A stretch of 64,000 bases of DNA from a virus. A program made the translations under genes and the position numbers. Below, piece by piece: positions 17,441 through 59,565 of the stretch. The notes beneath the pieces were generated by a model that worked only from the letters and a program-made list of their open reading frames with translations, had not been told where the DNA came from and did not search any database. Location of the stretch: positions 1-64,000 of the IMG/VR virus record IMGVR_UViG_3300020156_000448, one strand, 5' to 3'. Each line of letters starts with the position of its first letter. Position 1 is the first letter of the stretch.

Positions 17441-17454
17441 GTGTTACATTTTCC

Positions 17455-17508: not shown

Positions 17509-17513
17509 AAATT

Positions 17514-18215: not shown

Positions 18216-18256
18216 TATGCCTTTCTCTTTCATTTAGATACAAGGCAGCTTTTATT

Positions 18257-22080: not shown

Positions 22081-22109
22081 AATACTTTTATTATTATGCA
22101 CAACACATT

Positions 22110-28774: not shown

Positions 28775-28790
28775 TAACTCCCTCCCAGTG

Positions 28791-32877: not shown

Positions 32878-32878
32878 C

Positions 32879-39310: not shown

Positions 39311-41935
39311 TTAAACTGTTGCGACTGTTCCAACAGAGCCTATTACCTGCCATTGCGTGTTATTATTAATACATATAATTTCTACGCAATTCCTCTGGTG
39401 CGTAGATGATAAGTATCCTGTTGTGCCAGTGGATGTACTAGACTCACCGAAGTAGATTACTTGACCAGCGCCTTGCGCAATCTTCCATCCACCAGCACCT
39501 TTGCCAACTACTTTAATAATGTCTCCTGTATTGGCAGTTGCAGGCAGATTTATAGTTACCAGTGATGCATTATTAGCAATGTATCCATTATTCACTATTG
39601 CTGTCTCTGACGTAGTTGTTATTTCTGTAAAGCTAATAATACCCGTATTAATTGCAGCGATAGTATCATCTACATATTTTTTGGTTGTTGCATGATTATC
39701 AGTAGAAGGTAAGCCTGGAAGAGTTATGTTTCCAGAAGCGTCAACTGATGCTATTGGAGTTCCTGCATTGTTTTGCCACTCTTGAAGATTTGCAGATTGA
39801 CCAGCAGAACTTACTACTGTCAATACAGGAGCAGATGTAGTTGTTCCTATCACAGATAATGAAGCGTCTGCTGATGTTCCTGTTGCAAAACTTCGAGCCG
39901 AGCCGGACTGCCTATTACCAGATATTTCAATTCCGTAATAAGATTGCATAAGCATTCTATTGCCATAGAGCAATCCGATGGAATCCCACTCATTTCCAAA
40001 TTGAATGCTTGCGCCCTCTCCGCTAAGTAATCCAGAGAAGATTAATTTTCTCAGCGATGAAGAAGATGATCCAGTTGTAGATATTGTTTGATCCAAAGCA
40101 AATTGATTTGCGCTATCTAATCTGGCGACATTATTTGAAAGATAAGCATCATCTAATTCTCCACTAGTAATAGCCGATGCGTTAAGATTTGTTAAACTTG
40201 CGCCTGATCCAGAAAATGTTCCAGCAGTACAAGTGCCCGTTATAGATGCAGATGGAGCTTGTAGATACGCACCAGAAGAAGGCGGAGTTGTACTATTTAG
40301 TGATAGTCTAGAATTAATGGATACACCATTACTATTGTATCTAATTCTTTCCGTGGTATTGCTTTTAAAAACCATGTCGTATAGTGTGCCAGTACCAGCG
40401 CTAGTTGTACTCAACACAGCTACACCATCTATTATCCCAAACTGTAGATTACTATAGTTTACTGCATCTGTATCAAAATTAGTTCCAAATATGTCAATGT
40501 AATTTCTTGTTGTTCCTGTAGCAGGAATCAATCTAAATGCGTTATAAAGAGTCGTTCCAGGACGCAATCTAACAGAGCTTAAAGAACCAGAAATAACCTG
40601 AGATAACGTTGATGTTCCGATTGCAATTCCTTTGGTAGCGCCTGTTGTAAAAGTGTTTAGCTCTGCAAAGGTATTGGCAGAACCTTTTAATGCGACATTT
40701 CCAGATAATAAAGAATCAGATACGCTTCCAGTAGAAAGATTGCTTGCGTTAAGAGAAGTTAATGCCGCTCCTGAAATTGCAGGTAATGCCCCTTGCAGGT
40801 TTGCAGAAGGCACTAATACATCAGTATCTAACGTTCCTGCTGTTATATCTCCAGCAGCTACAGAGCCTGCCGAAACGCCTGTTAACTGACTTCCGTCGCC
40901 TATATAAACATTAGCTTGCATTGTGCCGCTAATTGTTACATCATTTGGTAATGAAAGAGTTATTCCGCCTGCACTATTAGCAATACTAATCTGATTTGCT
41001 GTTCCAGTGATATTTGATAGCGTGTATCCTGTTCCGTTTCCAATAAGTAATTGTCCGTTGGTTGGCGTTGTTGATATTCCAGTGCCCCCGTATCCAATTC
41101 CAATTGCGTTTCCTTGCCATGTGGAAGAAGTAAAAGTTTTATTTGAAATTGCTTGCGTGCTCGATGCATTCACTAAGACAATTTCAGAACCCAATAGCCC
41201 TGCTCTCCATGTTTGTGTTGTTTCATGCCAAAGCAATGAAGCATTTGGAGATGTTCCACGTTCAATTTCAATGCCTCCGTCTTCCGAAGGAGTTCCAGTA
41301 ACATTGCTATTTAGCACAATCACGTTATCTGATATTGTTAAGGTTTCTGTATCTATTACAGTTTGCGTTCCATCAACATTAAGGTTTCCCTTTAGTGTAA
41401 AGGTTCCAGACTCATATCTTAAGTATGCACCAGTAGTTTGATCGCCAAAGTACAGATTAAAAATTCCTGAGGCGTTAGAGGTTCCTGCGCCGATATAAAA
41501 ATTTGTAGAAGTGGTTCCATCATCATCTCCTGAATCGGCTTGAGAGGCAGAAAAGGCTGTATATATACTAGCACGAATTAAGCCACGTTCAATAGAATCA
41601 TAATCTTCTAACGCTATGCCTAAAATAGCTTGATCGCTAGCGGTTCTAGCTGTAGCGGTTCCATCCCCAGCAGAAGTAAGAAGATTTCCAGCAACGATAG
41701 TGCCAGTTACATAGATGTTGCCTTCCCCTAAAATAGTAACATAGGCTGGCTGACCTGACAAAGAAGTATTGTTAACAATGCCTGCAAAGATATCAGTCGC
41801 ATCGTGATTTGGAAAAATAACTTCGTCGGGATTATCGCGGTTATACACAACAACATCACCAGAATACATAACTTCATCACTTCCGTTTATGTATTTTCTT
41901 GTTATTTTATCTATGTTGATAGTGGAATTTGCCAT
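39311..41935 (-). CDS. Tail-fibre-like protein 1 with DUF2190-like N-terminus
   Basis: An 874-residue protein. The first 130 residues (SGDVVVYNRDNPDEVIFPN ... GEGNIYVTGTIVAGNLLTSA ... ILGIALED) resemble the small DUF2190-type beta domain of phage virion proteins. Then comes the fibre signature GNLNVDGTQTVIDTETLTIS and IVLNSNVTG, GIEIERG. Long Gly/Ser/Thr beta segments follow, and a C-terminal tip homologous to fibre 2 (IKVVGKGAGGWKIAQGAGQV). The three fibres are in one run with gaps of 10-14 bases. Confidence 0.8.
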   Translation of the reverse strand: MANSTINIDKITRKYINGSDEVMYSGDVVVYNRDNPDEVIFPNHDATDIFAGIVNNTSLSGQPAYVTILGEGNIYVTGTIVAGNLLTSAGDGTATARTASDQAILGIALEDYDSIERGLIRASIYTAFSASQADSGDDDGTTSTNFYIGAGTSNASGIFNLYFGDQTTGAYLRYESGTFTLKGNLNVDGTQTVIDTETLTISDNVIVLNSNVTGTPSEDGGIEIERGTSPNASLLWHETTQTWRAGLLGSEIVLVNASSTQAISNKTFTSSTWQGNAIGIGYGGTGISTTPTNGQLLIGNGTGYTLSNITGTANQISIANSAGGITLSLPNDVTISGTMQANVYIGDGSQLTGVSAGSVAAGDITAGTLDTDVLVPSANLQGALPAISGAALTSLNASNLSTGSVSDSLLSGNVALKGSANTFAELNTFTTGATKGIAIGTSTLSQVISGSLSSVRLRPGTTLYNAFRLIPATGTTRNYIDIFGTNFDTDAVNYSNLQFGIIDGVAVLSTTSAGTGTLYDMVFKSNTTERIRYNSNGVSINSRLSLNSTTPPSSGAYLQAPSASITGTCTAGTFSGSGASLTNLNASAITSGELDDAYLSNNVARLDSANQFALDQTISTTGSSSSSLRKLIFSGLLSGEGASIQFGNEWDSIGLLYGNRMLMQSYYGIEISGNRQSGSARSFATGTSADASLSVIGTTTSAPVLTVVSSAGQSANLQEWQNNAGTPIASVDASGNITLPGLPSTDNHATTKKYVDDTIAAINTGIISFTEITTTSETAIVNNGYIANNASLVTINLPATANTGDIIKVVGKGAGGWKIAQGAGQVIYFGESSTSTGTTGYLSSTHQRNCVEIICINNNTQWQVIGSVGTVATV

Positions 41936-41937
41936 AG

Positions 41938-43446
41938 TTATCGTAAATTATCTATAATTTTTTCTGCACAAATTTGCATCTTTTGGTAAATTTCTTCTGT
42001 GCGTTGAGCAATGGTGTCAGAAGCCTCCACATAAGAAGGAAAATGCTTTTGAAAAGCATCAGAGTATACATCTTTATCTTGATCCTCATACATGTAAATT
42101 CCTTGCCCAATAAAATGATTAACAATTTGAACTTGGTCTCTAAGTCTCTCAATCATACTTTTAGTTTCTGGGTCATTCATATCTGCTCCATTTTCAAGTA
42201 AATGTCGCATAATGTATGTAGTTTCATCAATTTCTACGCTAGCCTCGAAGGTTGGGACTAAATCGATGTTGTTTTCTAGTTTGTAGGCTGCGTGCCCATC
42301 AAACGAACCATAAAATTCATAGTTCGCAATTTGATTAGCTAATGCGTGAGCCTCAATTTCATCTACAAAAGATTCATTTTTAATCGATTCAATACAACTA
42401 ACTACTCCCGCAATAAACTTAGAATTTACGCTCAGATGTGTCACTAGCTTTTCAATCTTGTCGTAATTAAAATTACCGTCCTCATATAGGTTGGTACTTA
42501 TATAACTTACTAGTATATTATCCTGATCAACTAGGTCATCTATAGAGAAGCCGCCCACATCGTTTTGCATAACAATATCTGCATCTGTTGTTTTAGCTAA
42601 AAGTTCTAGCCTTGATTTATAATGTTCTAGATTAACTTTATTTTGTTCCCATAATTGATTAATCACTTCTGCATCAAGAGGCATATTGGGATGCAAGCCT
42701 CTTGGGTTATTTTTTCTATAGTTAGCCCCCACCTCTTTGACCAAAGAGTTGTTTAAATCTACTCTAAATTCTAACTCCCCATCGTCTGATCTTTGAGTAT
42801 ATATATTGGAAGCTGCTAATTCGGCATCTTCTTCAATGGTTTCTTTCGTTGAAGAATAGTCTATAGCGCCCAATACGGTCTTTCCAAACCAACTTCCGAA
42901 TAAATTATGATCATGTTTAGCATCTATTGGCTCAGTGTTTGTGTTTAAAGAAATATCTATTAAGTTCTGATCATTATCATCTAAGAACGCTGTCTCTCCC
43001 TCTTCGAGTTCAGCAACATATTCACTCTTTTTGGCAACTCCGTCAATGATGACATCATCAAATAACTCATAAATTCCAAAGGCTCGCAACAACAATACTA
43101 CTGGCTGAGCGTCATCGGAAACACCCTGCTTATCGCTTGCAGAGACAATATATAGATTTTTACCCTTACTTTTTAAGGAAAGCAATTGCTCTTTAAAGCC
43201 TTTTTCTAATTTGACCTTGCTACCTTTTGAATCTTCAATTAAAGTGTTGCTAATGAGCTTATATGGCGCTTCTGTGGCAGCAGCATATGATAGACCACCT
43301 TCAGGATTAGTGACTTCCCAAATTGTGTCATCGGCGTCGAAGATGATTGTATCATATTCGTTCAAATCATAACCTGCTACCTCTGTAGGTTTCATGTTCA
43401 TCTGAGTTAGCAATTCACTAACATCATCATTTCTATTACTTGGCAT
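41938..43446 (-). CDS. HAD-superfamily domain fused to a large uncharacterised region
   Basis: A 502-residue product from MPSNRNDDVS (GGAG upstream, overlapping the previous stop by 11 bases). Residues about 25-165 form a HAD phosphatase domain: TIIFDADDTIWEV (DxDxT nucleophile motif), LYIVSASDKQGV (motif II Ser) and a TAFLDDNDQNL motif IV Asp pair. The arrangement resembles MDP-1-type phosphatases. The remaining 330 residues are helical and unassigned. Two bases upstream of the first fibre gene. Substrate unknown. Confidence 0.68.
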   Translation of the reverse strand: MPSNRNDDVSELLTQMNMKPTEVAGYDLNEYDTIIFDADDTIWEVTNPEGGLSYAAATEAPYKLISNTLIEDSKGSKVKLEKGFKEQLLSLKSKGKNLYIVSASDKQGVSDDAQPVVLLLRAFGIYELFDDVIIDGVAKKSEYVAELEEGETAFLDDNDQNLIDISLNTNTEPIDAKHDHNLFGSWFGKTVLGAIDYSSTKETIEEDAELAASNIYTQRSDDGELEFRVDLNNSLVKEVGANYRKNNPRGLHPNMPLDAEVINQLWEQNKVNLEHYKSRLELLAKTTDADIVMQNDVGGFSIDDLVDQDNILVSYISTNLYEDGNFNYDKIEKLVTHLSVNSKFIAGVVSCIESIKNESFVDEIEAHALANQIANYEFYGSFDGHAAYKLENNIDLVPTFEASVEIDETTYIMRHLLENGADMNDPETKSMIERLRDQVQIVNHFIGQGIYMYEDQDKDVYSDAFQKHFPSYVEASDTIAQRTEEIYQKMQICAEKIIDNLR

Positions 43447-43912
43447 TGTATTTCTCCGATCCGCTATAAGCCTTTTCTTTAAGCTCCAATATGGCTTCTC
43501 CATGTTTCGTTACATCATGCTTTATTTCAAAAATTTTACCCTCTAAGCTCTCAATCGCCTTAGCATTATTATTAATCCTCACATCGTTGACGGTTGCTTT
43601 GGTCGATATTTCATGAATGTCTTTGCTAATTTCTTTATATTCTTCTTTGCCATTATAATTAAGGGTAATTAAAATACTCGCAATGCCAACAATAGCACAA
43701 ATGCCAGCAAATGCCAGATTTAGCCAACTATCGACACTAGGCTTCTGGGGCTTTTCATCAGCAGAGAGCATATTTTCTAATATTTTCTTAGCTAAATACT
43801 GATCGGTCATCTTACTAAAAAATTGTTTATTTCTAGTAATAGCCATGTCTAAGTCTTGGATATGCTCGTTAGCAGCCTCTAACTCTTCTATATTAATCTT
43901 CTTTTTATCCAC
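43436..43912 (-). CDS. Single-TM coiled-coil protein
   Basis: A 158-residue protein. An N-terminal helical segment is followed by one membrane helix near 65-85 (LNLAFAGICAIVGIASILIT) and a long C-terminal coiled coil (EISKDIHEISTKATVNDVRI ... IESLEGKIFEIKHDVTKH). The layout resembles XhlA-like phage membrane proteins in reverse order. It could be a lysis or virion-membrane factor; evidence is only topological. Confidence 0.6.
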   Translation of the reverse strand: MDKKKINIEELEAANEHIQDLDMAITRNKQFFSKMTDQYLAKKILENMLSADEKPQKPSVDSWLNLAFAGICAIVGIASILITLNYNGKEEYKEISKDIHEISTKATVNDVRINNNAKAIESLEGKIFEIKHDVTKHGEAILELKEKAYSGSEKYNAK

Positions 43913-43915: not shown

Positions 43916-45139
43916 TTACCTCTGTTTGTTTATGCGATCACTGCCCTTTACAATCTTCTTGTCAACTGAAGCGAAAGTCTTCTGAAAGTCTTTCCATGAT
44001 TTAATTTTGCTAATTCTGTCTCTTCTTTGCTCCCGACGCTTACGGTTTCTGTATTCTTTACGTCGCTGGATTCTCTCGTACATATGAGTATTATTATAAG
44101 CTGTTTTATACCACGATTTAGTATCTTCAAGATACAAATGATCCTTAACTGTGGAGACAGTTCCCAACTGAGAATCTAGCAAATCAATTGCTGTAGTAGA
44201 ATCTATTAGGTCTTGTATATAAAGGCTTGCTAAAGCCTGCTGAAGATTATTCTTAATGTCAGTATTAAGTAAATCTTGATAAGCAAGACATAATTGCAAC
44301 TTGTTCGCTGTTTTATCCAAGCTACATAAAACATTAGAAGCAGCCATATACTTGATTCCCATTTGCCTCTTTATTGAATGATCAAATATTTCATGAGGAA
44401 TCGGAATAGTATCGTATAGCTTGTATTTTTTAAACATAGCATCCGCCTTCTCATTGTCTATATCAAAGATGTCTCTTACAAGATTTTCAACAAAGCGCTC
44501 ACTTCTATCTGCTGTAGCTTGTGGTAAAAGTCCTATGCCGTAAGGAATTTCCTTTTTAAGGTCTTCTGTTGGTTCTAGTTCAAACTCCAACTGAAAACGC
44601 ATCATTCTTAAAATAATAAATGGATTAAACTCAATGGCGCTTCTGGCTGGAATAGGAGTTCTAATAACCTTGTTCTTTATCAGGTCGTCATAGCCTTGAC
44701 CAGTAACATCCAAAAATTTCTCATTAATTACATCGTAGCACATGGTATCGATTGTAAAGTCTCTCTCATAAATATTCTTATAAAGAAAAGTAATCGGAAT
44801 TCCTAGGCGCTGCATTTCGCCTTCTATTGGAAAGTGCACATGAGGATTATCAATACTCTGAAATTCAAAGTTATAACCATTGCATACTATTTTTTTTGTA
44901 CCTGTGTACTCGTACACAATAGGCTCTCCAAGACCAAACCTCTTTGAAAAATCCTGCAAAATTGCTTCCATTTTTCCTTCACGCGAAATCACATCAAAAT
45001 CTTGAATATCTTCGACTGGAACACCAAGCAGCCAGTCGCGCACGAATCCACCAACAATCAATGGATAATCACCAACTGCCTTGCCTGACTGTGCCAGTTT
45101 TTGAAAAGCATCTACTAGATTTTGAGGTAAGTCGCGCAT
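43916..45139 (-). CDS. CCA-adding enzyme/poly(A) polymerase family nucleotidyltransferase (a)
   Basis: A 407-residue protein with class II nucleotidyltransferase signatures: LIVGGFVRDWLLGVPVEDI followed by QDFDVIS (GG, RD and the D-x-D pair), IYERDFTIDTMCYDV (the RRDF..N-type block) and ILRMMRFQLEF. This family adds CCA to tRNA ends or poly(A) tails to RNA. No HD domain. The C-terminus is Arg/Lys-rich (RRKEYRNRKRREQRRDRISK), suited to RNA binding. One of three such proteins in 12 kb. Confidence 0.82.
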   Translation of the reverse strand: MRDLPQNLVDAFQKLAQSGKAVGDYPLIVGGFVRDWLLGVPVEDIQDFDVISREGKMEAILQDFSKRFGLGEPIVYEYTGTKKIVCNGYNFEFQSIDNPHVHFPIEGEMQRLGIPITFLYKNIYERDFTIDTMCYDVINEKFLDVTGQGYDDLIKNKVIRTPIPARSAIEFNPFIILRMMRFQLEFELEPTEDLKKEIPYGIGLLPQATADRSERFVENLVRDIFDIDNEKADAMFKKYKLYDTIPIPHEIFDHSIKRQMGIKYMAASNVLCSLDKTANKLQLCLAYQDLLNTDIKNNLQQALASLYIQDLIDSTTAIDLLDSQLGTVSTVKDHLYLEDTKSWYKTAYNNTHMYERIQRRKEYRNRKRREQRRDRISKIKSWKDFQKTFASVDKKIVKGSDRINKQR

Positions 45140-46247: not shown

Positions 46248-46985
46248 CTATATGATAAATTGCTCAAAACCATACTCTTGCAGCAATCTCTTTCCATTGT
46301 CTGGATTGGGCTTTAGTATTTTCTCAATAGTTTTTGAAGCCTTATCAATATCTATTTCAGTTAGAATATGTTCTCTATGTTTTCTAATGGCTGCATCAAG
46401 CTCATTATCTATAGTGAAATCATATCTGTTAGCAAAAACTAATGCTCGAAGAGCAATTATGGAGTTTGTCTTAACTGATAAATCTGCATTGACAGGACAT
46501 CTAATAATCCCATCATCCAAATCTTTTTTTGCCGTACCTAATACGTCATAAATTTTACCGCTTCTCAAGCTCATGATTAATGTATTTATAGTAAAATCAC
46601 GAGAAATAATATCAAAACTTAAATTGTTTTGGGGAAGATTGGTTTTTCTTAACTCAGGAAGAAGATCAAAGTTTTTTAAATTAGCCTTACAATCAATGTC
46701 CAAGCCATTGACACTAAGTTTTCCTGTACCTGTTTTATGGCTATATTCAACAGGAACACCAAATCTCTCTGCTACCGCGCCTGCTAGATAAAGACCGTGA
46801 TAATTTTCCGCCATAAGGTCAATATCGCTTTCACGTGTATGTTCTTTGCCCCAGTATTCATCTCTGCAAAATCCACCTACTGCAAATGCAATGAATCCTA
46901 AAGAATGCGTAATTTCGTCTATTCCGTTTAGCACAGAATAAACAACTGCTTCCTCTTGGCTTTTTGGCTTTTTATTTATTGGCAT
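46248..46985 (-). CDS. CCA-adding enzyme/poly(A) polymerase family nucleotidyltransferase (b), short
   Basis: A 245-residue protein with only the head and neck of the family: IAFAVGGFCRDEYWGKEH then RESDIDLMA (G-G, R-D and D-x-D intact), ISRDFTINTLIMSL, and IIALRALVFANRYDFTID. No C-terminal tRNA-binding body or HD domain. Compared with the usual 400 or so residues it is a minimal form. Activity is plausible because the catalytic acids are present; specificity is unknown. Confidence 0.78.
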   Translation of the reverse strand: MPINKKPKSQEEAVVYSVLNGIDEITHSLGFIAFAVGGFCRDEYWGKEHTRESDIDLMAENYHGLYLAGAVAERFGVPVEYSHKTGTGKLSVNGLDIDCKANLKNFDLLPELRKTNLPQNNLSFDIISRDFTINTLIMSLRSGKIYDVLGTAKKDLDDGIIRCPVNADLSVKTNSIIALRALVFANRYDFTIDNELDAAIRKHREHILTEIDIDKASKTIEKILKPNPDNGKRLLQEYGFEQFII

Positions 46986-46994: not shown

Positions 46995-47417
46995 CTATTT
47001 AGAGCCTCTAACAATACCTTTTTTATCCAAAGCTTCGTTTGCCCAATCTCTAATAGTGCCATTGTTTAAATGATTTACAAGCTCCATTGCATTAAATCGT
47101 TTCATTACAAGTGGAACGTTACACATTAAAGCTTCTCTAAATATGTCGTCCTTCGGCTCGCATCCTGATATAAATACAGCCTTGTGACTCAAACCCATTT
47201 TATGTAATTCGTTATATACATCTATGCCACTTATTCCATTGAGATAGAGATCAATTATATAATAATCTACCAAAGGTTCGAATCTACCATCTTGAACTGT
47301 CTTCAATGCTTCTTGAGCACTGCTTACAAATTCAGTCTCATGACCCAGCGCTTTAAACATTTCGGACAATGTAAAAGCTGTCAGTTCGTGATCATCTATG
47401 ATGCATACTTTTAGCAC
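46995..47417 (-). CDS. Response regulator, receiver domain only
   Basis: A 140-residue CheY-like protein. The acidic pocket is Asp8-Asp9, the phosphoacceptor is Asp56 in YYIIDLYLNGISG, with Ser84 in VFISG and Lys106 in LVMKRF. All conserved switch residues are present. No DNA-binding output domain; about 20 extra residues follow the fold. It sits 13 bases downstream of a histidine kinase gene and is the obvious phosphorelay partner. It would act by protein-protein contact. Confidence 0.88.
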   Translation of the reverse strand: MLKVCIIDDHELTAFTLSEMFKALGHETEFVSSAQEALKTVQDGRFEPLVDYYIIDLYLNGISGIDVYNELHKMGLSHKAVFISGCEPKDDIFREALMCNVPLVMKRFNAMELVNHLNNGTIRDWANEALDKKGIVRGSK

Positions 47418-47430
47418 AATTCACTCTCCA

Positions 47431-48957
47431 TTAATCCTTGTTAATCCTTATACTAAAGACTGTGTTTCCAGGCTCACTACTCTCTAGATTTAGTTCCATA
47501 TTGGCATTAGAAGCAAATACCTTGCTCAAATATAATCCTAAGCCTGTACCTGGAACTTCTCTAAAAGGTCTAAAAAAAGGATTAAACAAACGGTATTGAA
47601 GATTTGATGGGATGCCTCTACCATTATCCCTAACTTGAATTAAGTAATAATCTTCATTCTCTACAACATCAACTACTATCTTGCCTTCCTTTCTACTATA
47701 CGCCTTATCTTTATAGCTTGCAATAGCCTTTCTTGCATTGCTCAGCAAATTGATAACAACCTGTCTTAATATGTTATTTGCAGCAATTGCTCTAATTGAA
47801 GCAGGACCATTATATAATATCTTGATTTGGTTTTCTTTATAATCGGAACTTAGACAATATGTTTTAATAGTTTCCTGTAGTAAAACCGCTAAGTCTACTT
47901 CTTTTGTGTCACCTATTATAGCTTGTATTATATCTTCTTCAGTATTGTAACCCCGAATACTTCCAAAGCTCATAATGTTGCCTACAATTGTTTCAATAGA
48001 ATTTGCCGATTGTTTGATTGCTTGCAGGTATTCTAATTTCTTATCCGCTTCTAGGTCAATCAGTCCTTTGACATTACCTATTAAAAGATCAGCAGCGTTA
48101 TCTATTGCCTGAACTGGTGATCTTGTTTCATGAGTAATGCCAGAGATGAATGAATTAATAGCAGTAATTGTAAACTTTTGCATCTCTAAACCAAGAGTAT
48201 CCTTGAACTCGTTTAATTCTTGAACTGGATTTCTTATGGCTAATCCAGCAATATATATATCTCCTCTATAGCAATTAAAAGGGAATTTGAATACGAGCCA
48301 ACTAACCATGTCTCCTGTAGCATCTGGAACTTCTTCAAACAACTCTACGGGAACGTTTCCCTTAAGCATCATTTTGTCATGTTCTACTAATTCGGCTGCT
48401 ACACTTTTAGGGAATAAATCAAAATCGGTTTTACCAATTACTTCCTCTACTGAACTTCGTGCAAGTTCAGCAAATCTCTTATTGACATAAATGTACTCAC
48501 CTTTGCTATTTTTCATAAAAGCTATTGCTGGACTGTTTTCCATAAAGCTTTCAAACAAAGATTGACTTCTTCTTAATTCAAGATCGGCTTTAACTCGTTG
48601 TGTAATATCTTGGATAAAACGATAATGACCTTGAAAGACCATATCCTCATTATAGCATGCTACAATAACTAGGCGTTTATAATATACTTCACCGTCCTTT
48701 TTGACGCCCTTTAGTTCTAATTCGGTTTTACCATCTTGCAGCATCTTTTCAATAGCGCTATTGGCTTCATTATGACAATCTGGATGAATCGTGGTCGTCC
48801 ATGGCTTACCAATTAACTCATTCATATCATAACCACATATATTCGCGTAGGACATATTCAAGGAAATGTATTCTCCCTCAGCATTAATCAATGCTATTCC
48901 ATCCAATGCGTGCATCATAATATTATTGAATTGATAAAGACCCTCATTCTTATCCAT
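47431..48957 (-). CDS. PAS-PAS sensor histidine kinase, cytoplasmic
   Basis: A 508-residue kinase. The first PAS domain spans about 8-122 and the second about 130-245 (SPAIAFMKNSKGEYIYVNKR). A dimerisation domain carries the phospho-His at 276 (SGITHETRSPVQAI), and an ATPase domain has the N box (VINLLSNARKAI, about 401-412), G1 (RDNGRGIP, 443-450), F box (FNPFFRPF) and G2 (GTGLGLYLS, 470-478). No membrane segment, so the signal is intracellular. All catalytic boxes look intact. A full kinase in a phage late-gene run is very unusual. Confidence 0.9.
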   Translation of the reverse strand: MDKNEGLYQFNNIMMHALDGIALINAEGEYISLNMSYANICGYDMNELIGKPWTTTIHPDCHNEANSAIEKMLQDGKTELELKGVKKDGEVYYKRLVIVACYNEDMVFQGHYRFIQDITQRVKADLELRRSQSLFESFMENSPAIAFMKNSKGEYIYVNKRFAELARSSVEEVIGKTDFDLFPKSVAAELVEHDKMMLKGNVPVELFEEVPDATGDMVSWLVFKFPFNCYRGDIYIAGLAIRNPVQELNEFKDTLGLEMQKFTITAINSFISGITHETRSPVQAIDNAADLLIGNVKGLIDLEADKKLEYLQAIKQSANSIETIVGNIMSFGSIRGYNTEEDIIQAIIGDTKEVDLAVLLQETIKTYCLSSDYKENQIKILYNGPASIRAIAANNILRQVVINLLSNARKAIASYKDKAYSRKEGKIVVDVVENEDYYLIQVRDNGRGIPSNLQYRLFNPFFRPFREVPGTGLGLYLSKVFASNANMELNLESSEPGNTVFSIRINKD

Positions 48958-48964: not shown

Positions 48965-49444
48965 TTAGTGTGGTCCTCCTGTATATCCAGTTACGTTTTC
49001 TCCACCAATGATGTCGCTTTCAACGTCTCTGTTGTGAGACCAACTTCCAGGATTACCCTTAGAATAATCTGTTTTAGGATTAAATCTAGGCTGTCTACGT
49101 ATGCGTCCATCATACTTAGGATTACCCTTGCTATGGACTTCTTCTTTTTCTATCTTTCCTGTGCCATCGCAAACTTCGCATTGTGGGTTCATTCCATAGC
49201 AGCGTTTGCATGGCTTTTCTACCTTGATTTTACGGGAGCCATTAGGCTTTGTGCCTTTATCTGTTCCGTGCTCTTCTGTCATAGAGGGTTGAAGTTTTTG
49301 TTTATAGTTAATTACTCTCTCAGTGTCATATTCTGGATCGCTGCCAAAAGTATTATTCTCAGACCAAGGCGTAGCAATGCCTTGCCCATTATATTGAGCT
49401 TCAATTTGGTTTGCTATTATTTGAAATGCTTTTTTAAGACCCAT
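48965..49444 (-). CDS. Protein with DnaJ-like zinc motif
   Basis: A 159-residue protein. PCKRCYGMNPQCEVCDGTG near residues 78-96 is a C-x-x-C-x-G...C-x-x-C-x-G unit like half of the DnaJ zinc domain. The flanks are basic and low in hydrophobic residues, suggesting disorder outside the zinc site. It abuts the 2,025-residue gene without a gap. Function unknown. Confidence 0.6.
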   Translation of the reverse strand: MGLKKAFQIIANQIEAQYNGQGIATPWSENNTFGSDPEYDTERVINYKQKLQPSMTEEHGTDKGTKPNGSRKIKVEKPCKRCYGMNPQCEVCDGTGKIEKEEVHSKGNPKYDGRIRRQPRFNPKTDYSKGNPGSWSHNRDVESDIIGGENVTGYTGGPH

Positions 49445-52400
49445 TTATTCCCCCATGAACATAGGCATACGGCTGGTGATATTGTTTTCATAACCAGTAA
49501 GGTTTACCCTATATTTTTCATTATGTCTCAAAAAGTCCATTACAGACATCAAGTTACCGAATTTAATTGGCTTATCTGGTCTATCATAAGCTCTCATCAT
49601 ATAATTTCCAGATTGTTCATCTTGATAAAAATACAACATTCTTCTATGACCTTTATCAATGTTTTCTGGACGCTCTCTGCCAGAGTCCATATCAATCTCA
49701 AATTTGAATTTATAATTCGGGTATTCCTTATCGTGTAATTGGTCCAAATTTTGATGATTATTATTTCCTGGGGTCAACCTACTTGGATCAGCATCAGGAA
49801 TTGGCTCAGGACTAATTGGATATAGAGAATTCATTAGCTGTGCTGATTTAACGCTTGCGTAATAATCTCTCATAGGTTCTGCTGGATTAATATTGCCATG
49901 CATAGAAGATGGATTAGGGGTAAGCACAATGGATTTACGTGGTCGGTCTTTTGGTTGATCTTTAACCTGACCTTTGCCGCCTCCAAGATTAACCTCATTA
50001 GCTTTATCATCAGAATTCCATCTATTTGATCTTGGCTGAGTTTTCATTACAGGATAAATATCTTTAGCAATCTTTCTAAACATAGAAGTCATAGACGCGA
50101 GAGTATTCTTAGATGCTTCTTGCTTAATAAAGCTGGCTGCTTCTTCTTTTGAATTAACTCTTTTTTGCATCTGCGCCCTCACAAGGTTACTAATAAGTGT
50201 GTTCATCCAAGCTCCAGGTTTAATGTCTGGATTTACTTCTTTAACGATATTAAGAATTTCGTTTCCATTTAATAATGGTGTAATTACTTGTTTTCCTTCA
50301 TCTTTAATATTGCGATAGTTAGAGTACAACACCTCTTCAACTGCGCCTTTATCTACAGCAATAGCAGGATTGACCAAGATAGGCAGAATAGACAGAAGCC
50401 AACTACCTGCTGGCTTGCCTGTAATTTCTGCTGCCAGCGCTAATTTCTTCACTATATCGAAAGCTTGATTTCTGCTTGTAATTTTCTGGTCAATTTGCAA
50501 ATCAACAAGCTGTTTGTTTAGTAACCCAATCCATCTCAAATCCTTCGAAATCATGCTTCCAAATAGGGTCATTATTTCATTGCCATTGATAAATGGAGTC
50601 AATCTGCCTTGAATTCTCTGGAGACCGCCATTCTCATCCTGCTGTAAATGCTGTAGTGCAGCAACAAGATAATCATCTGTATTTCCAGGCTCTTTATGAG
50701 CGCGTCTATCAGCCATAGCTAACATAAGAAGATCAAAGATTTCATCATTCATCTTTTTGCCATATGCGCCCTTCATTGTAATCAATAGTCTTCCAAGCTG
50801 CGACTCAAGTTGAGTAGGGTCATTGATGACTTTATCAAGTCCTAGAACCTCATCATGCATTTTTACCAATGTGCTAATATTGGTAATTTCTTCCGTTGAG
50901 AATTTTAAACGCTGCAAATTAGCAAGAGTCTGCTCTGTCGATATTTCAGGGTGCCCAAAGTATCTTCTTTTTGAGACATTGCCTTCGCCATCGAACTCTT
51001 CCTGATAGCCTTTATCACCTTTAAACAATTTGCCTACATCATGAAATAATGCAGCCATATTGAGAGTAAATAACTTTTGAGGGTCTTTCACTCCATGTTG
51101 TTGTACCACTTGCTGCAAATGACTCATAACAGTCATTGTATGATCCCAAATGGATTCGTAGTGGTGTGGGTTCAAATGATCCATATCCCAGTTCTGCTCT
51201 GCCTGAACGGGAAGCTTTAACACAAATTGAAGGAGTCCACATTCCTTCATGAGCTTCAGGCTTTGTGCTGCGTTCGGAAGACTCATAATTTTTCTGAATT
51301 CTTCAGCTACTCTTTCGGCAGAAAGCTTTGGAGTATAATCATATTTCCAAAATTCAGAGTCTAATTCGTCGCCTTTTACGCCAATTAGATGTGGATTTTG
51401 TTTTATATAATCTACAATTGGGCTATCGATTTTAAAATCATGCTGGGCTGCTTGCCTAATTGCACGTAAAATACGAAGCGGGTCATCTTGAAAAATAGTA
51501 TCAATGGCGCTTGGGTCAGTGATTCTGATTGTTTTTTCCTGCACGTCTTGTAGCCCATGTCCTGTTGGATCATGAAGCGCACCCTCTATATCGCCTTGAA
51601 TATATTTATCGAGATCAAGGAACATAGCATTCATGCCAAAATCTCTGCGATTGGCATCCTCTTGAAAATTACCCATCTCTGTTCTTGGTTTGCGGCTTCC
51701 AGGTTCATATCTTTCTGTGCGAGGATATGCAATTTCCACCTCTCCAATTGGAGTAGGGACAGCATAAATACCGAAGGCTTCGCCTCTAGGAATTTGCCTT
51801 CCAAATTGCTTTGCTAATAATAAGCTGGGATTTATCGATGTTTCGAATGGGGCATTAGATATTAGCTGTGGTTTCTTTTTAGAATTATCCATATAATCAA
51901 TATCGGCGGTAATTCTAAAAAACTCTGATCTATAGTCAGATTGTTCTAAATTAAAGCTATTAACACGAACGAGCTTCTTTGCGCCCTCAAGATTATTTTG
52001 TATAAAACTCATTGGATCGCGCTGTGCTTCATCAATGAATGGCTGAATCTGTCTCATGTAAGTCTCAGTATCAGCTACATCCACCATAATATCTAAATCT
52101 TTTGGAGATTTTTTGCCAACCAATAAATCACGAACAAATCCGCCAGTAGCATATGGAACTAGTCCAACGGCACGAGACTTCTCAACAATATCTGATATCA
52201 CCTCCATATACTCTTGAGGAATGCTTATTTGTCTATTGTAAGCCTGTGCAAAATTAAACAGGTATCTTGCAAATGATCCTGTTTTTTTCATGTTTTTTGC
52301 ACCAGCCATCCATACCCAATCAGGTCCATATTCTTGATCCATATCCGCTACAAACCCACCAAGCTCCTCTGCTTCTTCAGGAGTAACTGTGGGTTTTTTA

Positions 52401-55400
52401 TTTGGTAAGCCAACACTCAACGAAAGCTCTTTTTTAGCATAATCAATAATAAAATCATACATAGATTGTGGTATGACATCACTGAAAATTTCATTCTTAC
52501 TATATTCGCTCGCATTTGATAAGGAAGCTGGAGGATCAAACATATACATTAATAAATCTGGCAATGTAAAAATCTGCCTAGGAACATTGGAATTCTTATG
52601 CAAGTATATTGAGATAGAGTCTCGCATACCGCCTTGAACAAATTGATCCACTTTGACTTTAATCCCATTGACCATTTGCTGGAAATCAGGTCTTTTCTGA
52701 ACATTAGATATAAATTCATCCCTAGTATTAGGGAGAGTTAACATCGTATTTTCTTCTGGTGGGATAACCTTGTTTGGAAACGTTACGAGTTTTTTGCCTT
52801 GATCAAACTCTAGCCTTTCCTGAGTTTTAGACTTAAGATACTGCTGCATAAAATATTTAGCAAACATATGCGTTAGATTCTGAATTTGCTGTTCTCTAGG
52901 AACTTTTTTTCCTGATTCAAATACGCTCTGCTCATATTCTACAAGCATCTCTCCCACAGTTTCCATCGCTGCTTCTCTATTCATTCCTTGAAACTCGATA
53001 GGGAAATTTTCGATAAGTTCAGATTTTATTTGCTCATTCATTCCTGCCGTAATTCGTGCATCAAAAGGGAATTGAGAATTGAAGAAAGCATATAACCTTT
53101 GTTTCATATGCTGAAGATTACCGTATTGAAACGCTAAAAGCTCAGTTGGCTCCGTTATCCATCCTCCAGCGGTTTGATAGTTACTGCTATCATCAATACC
53201 CACTCCAGTTAAATGGTGACTAACCTCATGCCATAAAGTATTTTCTTCTGAAAACGAAATGGTTTTGTCTTCTGGCTTAATACCTAAAAATTTCTCAAGA
53301 TTTTCAGCAGCATTTACCATGTCGTTTTCAGTTACGTCGCCTTTGGTAAAAACGAAAATTGTTGGATTGTCAGCGATCCCATATGATGGAGAATAAAACC
53401 CATTCATTTGGTATGGGCTATATCCCGCGTTTGCTAAATCTTCTGCTCCGAAGTGGCTAATAAATTTTTGACTGTCAACTAGATAAATATCCAATTCTTC
53501 AAGCTTGTTCATAGCAATTTCATAAGCTTTCTTATAATTACGTTTCCCATCATCATCGCGCCCAGTAAATACTTCTTCAGTATTATCTGTATATCTTTGT
53601 AGAAATGTTTTACAATACTCCATCAATTCAGGGAAGTCACTTACTTTCTTTTTGACCACGCCATTTTCCGCTGCTAAATATGATTTCATTCCTTCTCGCA
53701 CATCGTTTTTTGCTTTGGCGGTTTGGTGTCTTATTTCAGCACGAAGAGTATTTAAAAACTCTTGATCATTCTCATCTCTAGTTGTAATTGCAGAAATGAC
53801 CTTTAGTGCATCTGTCATATATCTTTTGGTGGTCTCGTAGACTACTTCGGGTGAAAATAACCCTGAACACAAAACAAACCACACCTGAGAGGCTTTTGCC
53901 ATTGAGTCAATAATTTTAGGCGGAAATGCTGCCATGATTTCCATGGTTGCATTAAAATCACTATCTAGTGGTCTGCTCCAATGTGGTGGATTATCAGGAT
54001 CATAATCTTCTTCCTTGGTTGGATTATTGCCACTTATAATCATGGAAGCCAAGAAGCTGCCTGCACTCTGAGTATATTTCCGAATTATAGCATGCTTAGA
54101 CATGTCTATATAAAAATTTTCCACTGCCAAATACTCGCCAGCGGCTTCTCTTGCCTTCGCAGTATCCAACTCTTTATAAAACCACTCTTTAAATGCTTGA
54201 GCTTTTTGCGGACCTGGAGCAAGACTACTATCTATCATTCTAGAGGCGGCAGATGCTTCAATAGCACTAAAAAAATATCTATCGTTTTCGAGTTTGGAAT
54301 CATAAAAGTTAACATAATCTTCGTACATGTTTCCAAAAGGATGAATTTGCCTGTTGTCTTCATCAATTAAAACAAGATTACCCTTGTATTGTTGCGCCTC
54401 TTCAGTGCTCTTGGAGTATCTTTCAATCTCACTTTCAGAGCTAGTAATTGATAGGCTTGCATCCTCTGGATATACTGATACTGTTTCTTTTAATTTTGCA
54501 AGAGTTTCTTCCTTAAAATTTACGCCACAAACAATGAACATTTCCGCTTGGATTGTATTATTGACATCTTTGTAATAATGAGACTTTGTTTCAGGATCGT
54601 GGAATTCTACTAATCCCTGTTGCTTGGCATTAAATAACCCATCTATAATTGAAATTATTTCTTGTGGCGTTTTTGAATAGAAAGGATAGCCTGCGCCTAA
54701 TTTCTCTTCTCCAACTCTTTGAAGTACCTTATGTTCAAAAGAACCATAGTTATATATGGCAGGAAGAATACTAGAATGGAAATCTCGTATTTTTTTATTC
54801 TCTCCCTTGTCACGCTCGCCTATCGGATATCCATCACTGTGCTTATACCCGATTCTCAGAGATTCTGTAAGCTCCATCAGCGCTTCAGGAGTAGGGAAGC
54901 TGAAGACGCGCTGCATTAAATCATATTTGGAATTAGCATCAGTAGAAAATATGGAATTCCATATTTCAGGATGGCGTTGACTCAATTCATCAACCATCCA
55001 TTTTGGATATCTATTAATACTCGAAAATACTCCGATGGCTGACTTGGGAGAAATCTCTAGCGTCATTATGTCTTTATATATATCATCTGTAAGACTATTA
55101 GGTATATCGGTTTTCCATTTTCCATTCCTATACATCTTGGAGGCATCTTCGTCGTGCACTTTAAACAACGACCATAAAGTAAACGCTTCTTGTTCTGGCG
55201 TACCCTTAGTTCTTCCTAGATATTTTTGAGCCAAATCCCAGTAATACCAGCCACCAAGAACATCTCTTTCCATAGCCAAACTTAACTTGTACTGACTAAA
55301 ATAATAATGATTGGGATATTTTTGAAAAAGAATACAGTCTATAACAGTATTTGTATGGGAATCTAAACCGAACTTTGTCACTGTAGATAAAATCTCTGGT

Positions 55401-55522
55401 GGAGCAGTATTTTCATCATACTTCATATACTCTTCTGCATCAAACGACTGAACACCGCGAAAGAAATCATCCGCGCCTGCGAGCATGATCATTTTATTGA
55501 AAATATTATTAGATTTTCCCAT
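49445..55522 (-). CDS. Giant multidomain protein: zinc metallopeptidase plus CCA-adding/HD nucleotidyltransferase
   Basis: A 2,025-residue single frame. A metallopeptidase-type H-E-x-x-H lies near residue 765 (LWHEVSHHLTGVG) with WITEPTELLAFQ downstream. A complete class II nucleotidyltransferase starts near 1120: YATGGFVRDLLVGKKSPKD then LDIMVD, RRDFGMNAMFLDL and DPLRILRAIRQAAQHDF. It is followed by an HD phosphohydrolase domain near 1450-1540 (YESIWDHTMTVMSHL ... ALFHDVGKLF). The first 700 residues and the last 200 are unassigned; the tail is low-complexity and basic. This matches the polyvalent-protein style of phage polypeptides that are injected or processed. It lies between the virion protease and the kinase genes. 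Confidence 0.8.
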   Translation of the reverse strand: MGKSNNIFNKMIMLAGADDFFRGVQSFDAEEYMKYDENTAPPEILSTVTKFGLDSHTNTVIDCILFQKYPNHYYFSQYKLSLAMERDVLGGWYYWDLAQKYLGRTKGTPEQEAFTLWSLFKVHDEDASKMYRNGKWKTDIPNSLTDDIYKDIMTLEISPKSAIGVFSSINRYPKWMVDELSQRHPEIWNSIFSTDANSKYDLMQRVFSFPTPEALMELTESLRIGYKHSDGYPIGERDKGENKKIRDFHSSILPAIYNYGSFEHKVLQRVGEEKLGAGYPFYSKTPQEIISIIDGLFNAKQQGLVEFHDPETKSHYYKDVNNTIQAEMFIVCGVNFKEETLAKLKETVSVYPEDASLSITSSESEIERYSKSTEEAQQYKGNLVLIDEDNRQIHPFGNMYEDYVNFYDSKLENDRYFFSAIEASAASRMIDSSLAPGPQKAQAFKEWFYKELDTAKAREAAGEYLAVENFYIDMSKHAIIRKYTQSAGSFLASMIISGNNPTKEEDYDPDNPPHWSRPLDSDFNATMEIMAAFPPKIIDSMAKASQVWFVLCSGLFSPEVVYETTKRYMTDALKVISAITTRDENDQEFLNTLRAEIRHQTAKAKNDVREGMKSYLAAENGVVKKKVSDFPELMEYCKTFLQRYTDNTEEVFTGRDDDGKRNYKKAYEIAMNKLEELDIYLVDSQKFISHFGAEDLANAGYSPYQMNGFYSPSYGIADNPTIFVFTKGDVTENDMVNAAENLEKFLGIKPEDKTISFSEENTLWHEVSHHLTGVGIDDSSNYQTAGGWITEPTELLAFQYGNLQHMKQRLYAFFNSQFPFDARITAGMNEQIKSELIENFPIEFQGMNREAAMETVGEMLVEYEQSVFESGKKVPREQQIQNLTHMFAKYFMQQYLKSKTQERLEFDQGKKLVTFPNKVIPPEENTMLTLPNTRDEFISNVQKRPDFQQMVNGIKVKVDQFVQGGMRDSISIYLHKNSNVPRQIFTLPDLLMYMFDPPASLSNASEYSKNEIFSDVIPQSMYDFIIDYAKKELSLSVGLPNKKPTVTPEEAEELGGFVADMDQEYGPDWVWMAGAKNMKKTGSFARYLFNFAQAYNRQISIPQEYMEVISDIVEKSRAVGLVPYATGGFVRDLLVGKKSPKDLDIMVDVADTETYMRQIQPFIDEAQRDPMSFIQNNLEGAKKLVRVNSFNLEQSDYRSEFFRITADIDYMDNSKKKPQLISNAPFETSINPSLLLAKQFGRQIPRGEAFGIYAVPTPIGEVEIAYPRTERYEPGSRKPRTEMGNFQEDANRRDFGMNAMFLDLDKYIQGDIEGALHDPTGHGLQDVQEKTIRITDPSAIDTIFQDDPLRILRAIRQAAQHDFKIDSPIVDYIKQNPHLIGVKGDELDSEFWKYDYTPKLSAERVAEEFRKIMSLPNAAQSLKLMKECGLLQFVLKLPVQAEQNWDMDHLNPHHYESIWDHTMTVMSHLQQVVQQHGVKDPQKLFTLNMAALFHDVGKLFKGDKGYQEEFDGEGNVSKRRYFGHPEISTEQTLANLQRLKFSTEEITNISTLVKMHDEVLGLDKVINDPTQLESQLGRLLITMKGAYGKKMNDEIFDLLMLAMADRRAHKEPGNTDDYLVAALQHLQQDENGGLQRIQGRLTPFINGNEIMTLFGSMISKDLRWIGLLNKQLVDLQIDQKITSRNQAFDIVKKLALAAEITGKPAGSWLLSILPILVNPAIAVDKGAVEEVLYSNYRNIKDEGKQVITPLLNGNEILNIVKEVNPDIKPGAWMNTLISNLVRAQMQKRVNSKEEAASFIKQEASKNTLASMTSMFRKIAKDIYPVMKTQPRSNRWNSDDKANEVNLGGGKGQVKDQPKDRPRKSIVLTPNPSSMHGNINPAEPMRDYYASVKSAQLMNSLYPISPEPIPDADPSRLTPGNNNHQNLDQLHDKEYPNYKFKFEIDMDSGRERPENIDKGHRRMLYFYQDEQSGNYMMRAYDRPDKPIKFGNLMSVMDFLRHNEKYRVNLTGYENNITSRMPMFMGE

Positions 55523-57597: not shown

Positions 57598-59565
57598 TTA
57601 AGCGCCACCATTATATGAATTAAAGTTATTCATTCTCTGAAATATAGATTGCCCAGCTCCGCCGCGATTTCCTGCACCATTTCCAGAAATGCTTGGGAAT
57701 TGATTTCCACCCAAAGGAAGATTCATAACTCTAGATGTTAAAGCCTTTCTTGAGGTTCTTTCAGTACTTAAAAAACATGCTCCTGCAAAGCAGTCAGCGA
57801 CATCCTTAGTTTTAACTACTCCTGCATGATTCGCAACAATATTTGGTCCTCTAGCTGTTCGCTTAACTCTTAAGTTCTGCAATTCAACCTTTAATTGTAA
57901 ATCATTTTGACAAGCAATTACTCGCCCATCCAACATAATTGTTCTTAGGTTGTCATATATCTCACGAGCTTTATTACCATTGAATGATAGCAATCTTACA
58001 GGCAGTCCTCTTCTTCTAAAAAAGCTTATAGATTCAGTACTTTGCATACCATCATAAGAGAATGAAACTACTCTGAACTTCCTTGCTACATCAGCAATGT
58101 AATGAAGTATCTCATTAATTGTATACTCCTTACCTGTCTCATTATCCACAAAATGTTCTGGATTTCTTTTGGATGGAGTCCAGAAAAAACTATCATCCTC
58201 GATATAGAAATTTTCATATTGATTAGTTTTAGGATTAAATCTATACTCGTAATGGATAATACAATAAGCGTAATTACAAGTTTTAAAAGCGCAGTCGATA
58301 TGCATATAATATTTAATCATTGCATTTTCAGGACCAGGTTTCTTAGCGATATTTTCTGGATTAGCAAATGCGTATTCCACAGCAGTTTCTGGAAGATAAA
58401 CATCTGCACCTTCGTCTACAAACTGAGCACCAAATAGCTTATCGAATGATAAACCTTCAGCATCCTCTTCGTAGATCATATCGCTTTCTAAGAATTCCTT
58501 GGTCATGTCATTTCTCCACTCCCAAGTAGGCATCTGAATTACTAAAAAGTTATCAGCCTGAGGAAGTCTACCTTGATCAAAGTTCGTCCAAAACTTCCCT
58601 TCTTTTTTATTAGGCATTGATGTCATCATAACTCTACCAGCCTCTGGATGAAGAGCACGGTAGGTTGTCGTCTGCGCCAAGATAGCTTCCAAGAGCTTTG
58701 TATCGTTATCTTTTCCGTCTGTATTAAAAAGCGCAAACTCATCGAAATAAGCGAGAATGGTAGCAGTTCCGTGGAGGGCTGCTGAATTAGAGTGAATAGC
58801 TGCAACTTCAATAGAACCCTTCAGTTGAACGTTATGCATCCCCATTGCTTTTTGTCTTTTGTATCTCTGCTCATCAAATTCAGTCCTATAGAATACGGTT
58901 TCTTCTTCTGGAGTATATCTAGCTTCTAGCAAAGGACTTTCCATTGCACGTTCCTTGTGCATTTTAAGACCAGTGTTTTTAGCCTGCGTTAAACTCGTTG
59001 CTGCTATAAATATACGAAGTGGCTCTGCTCCGCGCACGCCCAAATATCCTTGAGGATGATTTAAGCATTTAGAACCACAATCAGGACAAAGCTCTCCGCT
59101 TTGCACCGGCTTCATGTCCTTACATTTAGGACATACTATCATAGTAATAAGTTTATATACCTCATAAGCTGTTATAGCGCTACTAAGGAAGGTCTTTCCT
59201 GAACGACGCCCTAGTGCCATAACTAAATACTGAAATGGTTTTGTGATCTCTCCGCTTTGTACCTTTTTAGCCTTAGCCAAAAGCCAAGGATTGCCTTGAC
59301 CATAATTATCAATCTTCTCAATAAGCTCAAGGTCTTCGTCAGTAATTTTTATACTTTCGTTGCCAGGAGTATTGATATAAAATAATTTAAGAATTAGTTT
59401 AGCGTATGGGAAAACACCAAAATCTAAACCTAAGTCTTCCACAAACTGCAATATACTCATCAAGCCTGATGACGATGAACTCTTTTTCTCGTATAGCTTT
59501 TTCTTTACCATGTCCGCAAGCATTTGATCTAAATCAATTACTTCGGACTTATTTTTAGCTGCCAT
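57598..59565 (-). CDS. terL: Terminase large subunit
   Basis: A 655-residue packaging motor. The Walker A-type loop is ALGRRSGKTFLSSA near 117-130 and the Walker B is TILAYFDEFALF near 268-279 with the catalytic Glu. An RNase-H-like nuclease domain begins near 420 (YYMHIDCAFKTCNYAYCIIH) and closes with a DCFAGACFLS segment. Between Walker A and B, near 145-170, lies an inserted zinc ribbon (CPKC ... CPDCGSKC), uncommon in large terminases. The C-terminus is Gly/Asn-rich. It translocates genomic DNA into the prohead and cuts it. Confidence 0.92.
   Translation of the reverse strand: MAAKNKSEVIDLDQMLADMVKKKLYEKKSSSSSGLMSILQFVEDLGLDFGVFPYAKLILKLFYINTPGNESIKITDEDLELIEKIDNYGQGNPWLLAKAKKVQSGEITKPFQYLVMALGRRSGKTFLSSAITAYEVYKLITMIVCPKCKDMKPVQSGELCPDCGSKCLNHPQGYLGVRGAEPLRIFIAATSLTQAKNTGLKMHKERAMESPLLEARYTPEEETVFYRTEFDEQRYKRQKAMGMHNVQLKGSIEVAAIHSNSAALHGTATILAYFDEFALFNTDGKDNDTKLLEAILAQTTTYRALHPEAGRVMMTSMPNKKEGKFWTNFDQGRLPQADNFLVIQMPTWEWRNDMTKEFLESDMIYEEDAEGLSFDKLFGAQFVDEGADVYLPETAVEYAFANPENIAKKPGPENAMIKYYMHIDCAFKTCNYAYCIIHYEYRFNPKTNQYENFYIEDDSFFWTPSKRNPEHFVDNETGKEYTINEILHYIADVARKFRVVSFSYDGMQSTESISFFRRRGLPVRLLSFNGNKAREIYDNLRTIMLDGRVIACQNDLQLKVELQNLRVKRTARGPNIVANHAGVVKTKDVADCFAGACFLSTERTSRKALTSRVMNLPLGGNQFPSISGNGAGNRGGAGQSIFQRMNNFNSYNGGA

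What the first reader, a model, noticed from the sequence alone, without database searches (positions are those of the whole stretch)
46995..48957. Complete two-component system inside a phage late-gene run
A PAS-PAS histidine kinase with intact H, N, G1, F and G2 boxes and a single-domain response regulator with Asp56/Ser84/Lys106 are adjacent (13-base gap) and share strand and packing with virion genes. The kinase has no membrane segment, so it reads an intracellular cue; the regulator has no DNA-binding domain. Two-component pairs are established in bacteria and very rare in phages. A phage-owned phosphorelay could monitor redox, ligands or infection state, or feed into a host relay.
Basis: partly seen in the sequence, partly recalled or inferred. 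Interest (0 to 1): 0.82.

Follow-up and report, generated by a model that had tools for sequence, protein, structure and literature searches.

The report
Phage-encoded two-component signalling pair
This large bacterial virus carries its own intact sensor kinase and partner regulator between its DNA-packaging and tail-fibre genes; the two proteins look ordinary in chemistry but are long diverged from any bacterial counterpart found, suggesting the virus reads a signal inside the infected cell and answers by protein contact rather than by switching genes.

Summary
On the minus strand, 47431-48957 encodes a soluble PAS-PAS-HisKA-HATPase_c kinase (508 aa) with every catalytic box intact. Thirteen bases downstream, 46995-47417 encodes a single-domain response regulator (140 aa) with D8/D9, D56, S84 and K106. 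They lie in a tight run between the terminase (57598-59565) and tail-fibre genes (from 41935 down) of a 125-kb virus record. They are not a recent host insertion: kinase codon usage is typical of the phage, best identity to any compared kinase is about 30%, and its tree branch is 2.85 against a median of 0.61.

The best reading is a working phage-owned two-component system whose output is protein contact, not DNA binding. Signal and target are unknown. Two unrelated phages carry comparable kinase plus stand-alone-receiver sets: Microcoleus phage My-WqHQDG, and a 211-kb IMG/VR phage where the pair follows a spanin-like lysis cassette. Alteromonas phage V22 has only the receiver. Phage kinases and receivers are known singly; I found no paper describing a complete pair with a stand-alone receiver.

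The parts
47431..48957 (-). Soluble sensor histidine kinase, 508 aa: PAS (19-120), PAS (140-233), HisKA with phospho-acceptor H276 (HETRSP), HATPase_c (N403/N407, D444-G446-G448, F461, G470-G474)
   Evidence: Pfam; NCBIfam; catalytic columns; AlphaFold2 model pLDDT 78.9 overall, 86-97 over most of the ATPase domain (one block at 77), pTM 0.53; no TM segment
46995..47417 (-). Single-domain response regulator, 140 aa, GTG start; D8/D9, phospho-acceptor D56, S84, K106; unusual N60 and R107; extra C-terminal helix 122-132; no output domain
   Evidence: Pfam; AlphaFold2 (beta-alpha)5 receiver fold pLDDT 87.3, pTM 0.83; 536 PDB matches at E<=0.001, top ones receivers, including RR468 bound to HK853
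47418..47430 (-). 13-base intergenic gap; the 22 bases before the GTG read AAGGATTAATGGAGAGTGAATT and hold a purine-rich ribosome-binding site
48965..49444 (-). Upstream gene, 159 aa, with a zinc-ribbon-like stretch (CKRCYGMNPQCEVCDGTG); 7 bases before the kinase; function unknown
46248..46985 (-). Downstream gene, 245 aa, PolyA_pol/CCA-adding head-domain nucleotidyltransferase; 9 bases after the regulator
57598..59565 (-). Terminase large subunit (context: phage ownership, same strand and run)
   Evidence: phrog_2 E 8e-14; tblastn to Streptomyces, Mycobacterium and Rhodococcus phage terminases
39311..41935 (-). Tail-fibre protein (context, downstream end of the same run)
   Evidence: phrog_31660 E 2e-9
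43436..43912 (-). 158-aa protein with one strong membrane segment (66-84) and charged flanks; possible holin-like protein a few genes downstream of the regulator
   Evidence: hydropathy; no family match; assignment is inference

Best explanation
A functional, phage-owned two-component system. In the infected cell the tandem PAS domains bind or sense an intracellular cue and control autophosphorylation of the kinase dimer at H276. The phosphoryl group passes to D56 of the adjacent receiver. The phosphorylated receiver then acts by binding a partner protein, like CheY, DivK or Spo0F, because it has no DNA-binding or enzymatic output domain. Because the pair is packed into the terminase-to-tail-fibre run, it is probably made in the late phase and adjusts a late event (virion assembly, lysis timing, or host physiology at that stage). 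Shown here: architecture, intact catalytic residues, co-directional near-contiguous packing, phage residence, long divergence. Inferred: phosphotransfer, cue, late expression, partner.
For: Domains and catalytic residues. Receiver fold predicted with good confidence and matched to classical receivers, including RR468 in the HK853 complex (5uht_B), while HK853-type kinases are the best solved sequence relatives of the kinase. Only one HATPase_c and one Response_reg in the record, and they are neighbours. No Hpt domain that would make a longer phage-internal relay. Gaps of 7, 13 and 9 bases and ribosome-binding sites in a tight run. Codon usage of the kinase ranks 5th closest of 40 large phage genes to the phage mean. 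Kinase branch 2.85 against median 0.61 with all catalytic residues kept, which implies long maintenance. Comparable kinase + stand-alone receiver sets in two unrelated phages.
Against: No biochemical or expression data. No close relative found in IMG/VR scans, so selection (dN/dS) could not be measured. The receiver departs from 29/30 relatives at D+4 (N60) and K+1 (R107). Promoter-like matches in the region are no more than chance (14 against 20.1 expected), so late expression is inferred only from position. The cognate relation is inferred from adjacency.
Confidence: 0.62

Rival explanations
1. The pair taps a host relay: the phage receiver (or kinase) exchanges phosphate with host kinases, hybrid kinases or phosphotransferases, so the phage rewires a host decision instead of running a closed circuit.
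For: The receiver has no output domain and there is no phage Hpt. Alteromonas phage V22 has a lone receiver and no kinase, so at least one phage receiver must be served by the host if it is phosphorylated at all. phiCDHM1 has a kinase and no regulator (PMC3901668). Many of the nearest cellular kinases are hybrids (26 of 80).
Against: Here kinase and receiver are both present and adjacent, the usual mark of a cognate pair. The host is unknown, so cross-talk cannot be examined. Both proteins are far from all cellular relatives found.
Confidence: 0.22
2. Phosphate sink or decoy: the receiver drains phosphoryl groups from host kinases (or the kinase acts mainly as a phosphatase) to silence a host stress or defence response.
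For: A single-domain receiver without output fits a sink. The kinase H-box HETRSP keeps an E at +1 and S at +4, compatible with phosphatase activity (motif interpretation from general knowledge).
Against: A complete PAS-PAS kinase with intact ATP-binding boxes is more than a decoy needs. PADLOC-DB gives no defence-system match for either protein.
Confidence: 0.08
3. Recent host cargo, assembly chimera or contamination: bacterial genes picked up lately or joined by mis-assembly, without phage function.
For: Such cases exist in the databases: MW462191, labelled a phage, has four kinases among typical bacterial genes, and one of them groups near Rhodospirillaceae with a short branch (0.66).
Against: Codon usage typical of this phage (rank 5 of 40), similar GC, tight packing with virion genes on both sides; best identity about 30% and branch 2.85; no hit above 60% identity in phages or plasmids.
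Confidence: 0.03
4. The receiver is not a phosphoreceiver but a cyclic-phosphate-processing 'cRec' domain, an RNA-repair enzyme working with the neighbouring nucleotidyltransferases and HAD phosphatase.
For: Three PolyA_pol/CCA-type nucleotidyltransferase genes and a weakly HAD-like protein lie within 14 kb. cRec domains of jumbo phages sit in RNA-repair neighbourhoods (PMC7824862).
Against: cRec is described as never found in histidine-kinase systems (PMC7824862), whereas this one is beside a kinase. Pfam reports Response_reg only. In the structural search classical viral receivers score down to 2e-7 while the annotated cRec protein ranks 35th at 0.023.
Confidence: 0.04

Closest known systems
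HisKA-family soluble PAS histidine kinases (HK853-type catalytic core) with single-domain response regulators (CheY/DivK/Spo0F/RR468 type)
   Same: Same domain architecture, same catalytic residues, same gene order kinase-receiver. 10 of the 80 nearest cellular kinases have an adjacent single-domain receiver and 26 are hybrids.
   Different: Encoded by a tailed phage inside its virion-gene run; about 30% best identity to any compared kinase; receiver with N60 and R107 instead of near-universal prolines.
Microcoleus phage My-WqHQDG (OR578706) kinase-receiver-receiver cluster
   Same: Kinase (545 aa) overlapping a single-domain receiver (138 aa) and followed by a second receiver protein (171 aa) in a phage genome.
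   Different: Lies between primase and helicase genes, not virion genes. Kinase falls elsewhere in the tree; receiver shows no significant pairwise match to this one.
IMG/VR 3300005077_000489 (211 kb) receiver + receiver-PAS-GAF-kinase pair
   Same: Phage-owned, with a stand-alone 128-aa receiver, embedded in late genes (major capsid protein and spanin-like lysis genes just upstream).
   Different: Receiver precedes the kinase; the kinase has its own N-terminal receiver, three PAS domains and a GAF domain; a third receiver lies elsewhere in the genome.
Alteromonas phage V22 CheY-like ORF30 (QHZ59753)
   Same: Single-domain phage receiver in a late run, shortly after the tail fibre and near a papain-like amidase; 22% identity, pairwise E 2e-5.
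   Different: No HATPase_c match in the genome, so no kinase of its own was found.
phiCDHM1 AgrC (PMC3901668) and pelagiphage kinases beside curli genes (PMC9599517)
   Same: Phage-encoded histidine kinases.
   Different: phiCDHM1: kinase-like protein in an agr quorum-sensing locus with no regulator. Pelagiphages: kinase linked to a curli secretion cluster; no response regulator is mentioned in the passages I read.
cRec domains of jumbo phages (PMC7824862)
   Same: Receiver-like fold in large phages.
   Different: Reported never to occur in histidine-kinase systems and proposed to be enzymes; this receiver is classical and kinase-linked.

Membership tests
HisKA histidine kinase | Dimerisation/phosphoacceptor domain with H-box His (HExxxP) | tested here: met
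   HisKA Pfam above cut-off; H276-E277-P281
HisKA histidine kinase | HATPase_c with N, G1, F, G2 boxes | tested here: met
   N403/N407, D444-G446-G448, F461, G470-G474
HisKA histidine kinase | ATP-dependent autophosphorylation | not testable with these tools
   needs purified protein
Response regulator receiver | Acidic pair, phospho-acceptor Asp, T/S and Lys in a (beta-alpha)5 fold | tested here: met
   D8/D9, D56, S84, K106; model pLDDT 87.3 with alternating strands and helices
Response regulator receiver | Usual prolines at D+4 and K+1 (common, not required for phosphorylation) | tested here: not met
   N60 and R107, against Pro in 29 of 30 relatives
Response regulator receiver | Phosphorylation by the cognate kinase | not testable with these tools
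   needs phosphotransfer assay
Single-domain (CheY/DivK/Spo0F-like) regulator | Receiver only, no output domain | tested here: met
   140 aa; Response_reg 4-117 is the only Pfam match; one extra helix 122-132
Single-domain (CheY/DivK/Spo0F-like) regulator | Relay through Hpt or binding to a defined partner | tested here: inconclusive
   No Hpt in the phage record; host unknown; partner not identifiable from sequence
cRec (cyclic-phosphate-processing receiver) | Occurs with NAD/RNA-repair genes and never in histidine-kinase systems | tested here: not met
   Adjacent to an intact kinase; classical receivers match far better
Recently acquired host gene (moron/AMG) | High identity to a host lineage and foreign composition | tested here: not met
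   about 30% best identity, long branch, phage-typical codon usage
Phage-owned late gene | Located within phage structural genes on the same strand | tested here: met
   Terminase upstream, tail fibre downstream, gaps mostly under 20 bases
Phage-owned late gene | Late transcription | not testable with these tools
   no expression data; consensus promoter scan uninformative

The most novel reading that the evidence does not exclude
Tailed phages have repeatedly acquired and long maintained their own phosphorelays in which a soluble sensor kinase drives stand-alone receivers, expressed with virion and lysis genes. These circuits gate late infection events (assembly or lysis) on an intracellular cue by protein contact instead of transcription.
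Probability: 0.2. Interest if true: 0.85.

Novelty: new variant of a known kind. Interest (0 to 1): 0.57.

Why it matters
Phages are usually thought to time infection through transcription cascades, holins and, in temperate phages, arbitrium or quorum circuits. A phage that owns a complete, long-maintained sensor-regulator pair with no DNA-binding output would be a different kind of decision device: post-translational sensing during infection. It is directly testable, because phosphotransfer assays are standard and an activated receiver can be used as bait for phage late proteins. The recurrence in other unrelated phages gives a comparative handle on what such devices control.

Tried and rejected
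Single-protein IMG/VR scans with the kinase, terminase and receiver found no confirmed relative, so no synteny or dN/dS test was possible. A terminase alignment had few conserved stretches, and a terminase Walker-A DNA pattern gave one unrelated contig. Many 'phage' hits in INPHARED (Salmonella, Listeria, Acinetobacter, MW462191) look like bacterial contigs filed as phage and were not counted. The single ATPase match in Atu_ph07 and those in L024 and L026, which read as topoisomerase-like, and in the near-identical L025 were not counted as kinases. Homology of the neighbouring single-TM and zinc-ribbon proteins to those beside the 211-kb phage's pair was tested and is not significant, so a shared ancestral cassette is not supported. 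The promoter/terminator scan gave fewer promoter-like sites than shuffles. The cRec and recent-insertion readings were considered and rejected as above. A first script used the wrong window file and was redone.

Full report
OBSERVATION. Pfam gives two PAS domains, HisKA and HATPase_c for the first, and Response_reg for the second, all above curated cut-offs. Aligned with 34 other kinases, the window kinase keeps every universal residue: H276, N403, N407, D444, G446, G448, F461, G472 and G474. The receiver keeps the acidic pair D8/D9, D56, S84 and K106, but has N60 and R107 where 29 of 30 receivers have proline. Neither protein has a membrane segment. AlphaFold2 gives a confident receiver fold (pLDDT 87.3, pTM 0.83) whose PDB matches are classical receivers. 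The kinase model is good over the catalytic domain and weaker in domain packing. None of this is chance.

OWNERSHIP. The window lies in a 125,053-base virus record. The pair sits in a run of minus-strand genes between the terminase (57598-59565) and a tail-fibre protein (39311-41935), with an endolysin further down (27947-28801). The record also carries a DNA polymerase III alpha subunit, a sliding clamp and a sigma factor, plus a second sigma factor in the window. Gaps around the pair are 7, 13 and 9 bases and ribosome-binding sites are visible. Kinase codon usage is the fifth closest to the phage mean among 40 large genes. Capsid and portal genes could not be recognised, so 'late-gene run' rests on terminase, tail-fibre and lysis genes.

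AGE AND ORIGIN. Against phage and plasmid collections every kinase match is below 60% identity, around 25%. A genome-collection scan returned kinases from many phyla at 34-55% over the short catalytic stretch; over longer stretches local alignments give about 22-29%. In a 92-row tree the window kinase has an end branch of 2.85 against a median of 0.61 and a best identity of 30%. The Microcoleus phage and 211-kb phage kinases have equally long branches (2.83 and 3.05), while a kinase from MW462191, a 'phage' record that looks like bacterial DNA, has a short one (0.66). The Microcoleus phage kinase falls in a different part of the tree from the window kinase, so at least two acquisitions are likely; the placement of such long branches is unsure. 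The genome scan covers one genome per species and only loci sharing a short motif, so a closer donor could exist unseen.

OTHER PHAGES. Microcoleus phage My-WqHQDG has kinase, receiver and second receiver in a row. IMG/VR 3300005077_000489 (211 kb) has a major capsid protein, weakly matched Rz-like spanins, then a 128-aa receiver overlapping the preceding gene by four bases, then a receiver-PAS-GAF-kinase. Alteromonas phage V22 has a lone receiver shortly after its tail fibre and no kinase match (PMC7289586). A motif-based look at IMG/VR gave 46 kinase-bearing stretches; most are hybrid kinases with the receiver in the same frame, the rest are kinases without a receiver or with a separate multidomain regulator, and none is a clear kinase plus separate single-domain receiver (one weak, fragmentary candidate, L128). 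Only 5 of 29 of the larger records showed a terminase match, so many may be host flanks. That survey is biased by its motif, but it supports the pair being unusual. Fold comparison with viral models also shows phage receivers and kinases, and hybrid kinases in giant viruses.

LITERATURE. No paper in the held library uses phrases such as 'phage-encoded histidine kinase' or 'phage-encoded two-component' (spelling-dependent, and the library is partial). Single phage components are described: AgrC without a regulator in phiCDHM1 (PMC3901668), kinases preceding curli genes in pelagiphages (PMC9599517), and the V22 CheY-like gene (PMC7289586). A survey of 224 jumbo phages reports divergent cRec domains never linked to histidine kinases (PMC7824862). 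The present receiver is the opposite case.

MECHANISM. The simplest reading is the textbook chemistry: PAS-controlled autophosphorylation at H276, transfer to D56, and a phospho-dependent contact of the receiver with a partner. There is no DNA-binding domain in the receiver and no Hpt in the record, so output is by binding, or through a host relay. Position suggests late expression. In the 211-kb phage and V22 the receivers also lie with late genes close to lysis or host-recognition genes, which makes a late event (assembly, lysis timing) an attractive target, but the neighbouring proteins are not detectably homologous between phages and the Microcoleus phage breaks the pattern. I put the working-pair-with-contact-output reading at 0.62 and the host-relay reading at 0.22.

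VERDICT. Real, intact, phage-owned, long maintained and unusual; chemically ordinary. New variant of a known kind, interest 0.57.

Noticed in passing
window 43916-45139, 46248-46985, 49445-55522 (-): Three separate PolyA_pol/CCA-type nucleotidyltransferase genes within 12 kb, flanking the kinase-regulator pair, though ARAGORN finds no tRNA gene in the window. Why a phage needs three is unexplained.
   Followed up: partly
window 49445-55522 (-): A 2025-aa protein near the terminase combines an HExxH zincin-like motif (HEVSHHLTG), a CCA-type nucleotidyltransferase, an RNA-binding domain and an HD domain.
   Followed up: no
window 3204-4028 (+) and record position 71673-72449 (-): Two sigma-70-family proteins; the first resembles the ECF-type sigma of Microcystis phage MaAM05 (30% over 185 aa), which also carries a histidine kinase.
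   Followed up: partly
window 15370-18637 (-): A run of small proteins that share an N-terminal motif like VKFIFxKE or IHFVFTKE, apparently tandem paralogues of unknown function.
   Followed up: no
window 32155-33601 (-): Two adjacent paralogues starting with ILSNFRCGTH(L/Y)LH, sulfotransferase-like by eye, next to the fibre genes.
   Followed up: no
record position 112238-114946 (+), L017 8238-10946: A glycosyltransferase frame of 902 aa with a probable intein (weak Intein_splicing match at 246-607) in its middle.
   Followed up: no
L108 24959-26198 (Alteromonas phage V22): A stand-alone CheY-like receiver sits shortly after the tail fibre and near a papain-like amidase in a cultured phage without any HATPase_c match; a practical model for testing phage receivers.
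   Followed up: partly
phages collection MW462191 (L003): Record labelled 'Bacteriophage sp.' carries four histidine kinases, cytochrome c maturation and other housekeeping genes and looks largely bacterial.
   Followed up: partly
window 21619-22101 (-): Macro-domain-like protein by eye (phrog_335 'phosphatase', E 3e-32), a possible ADP-ribose-processing gene.
   Followed up: no
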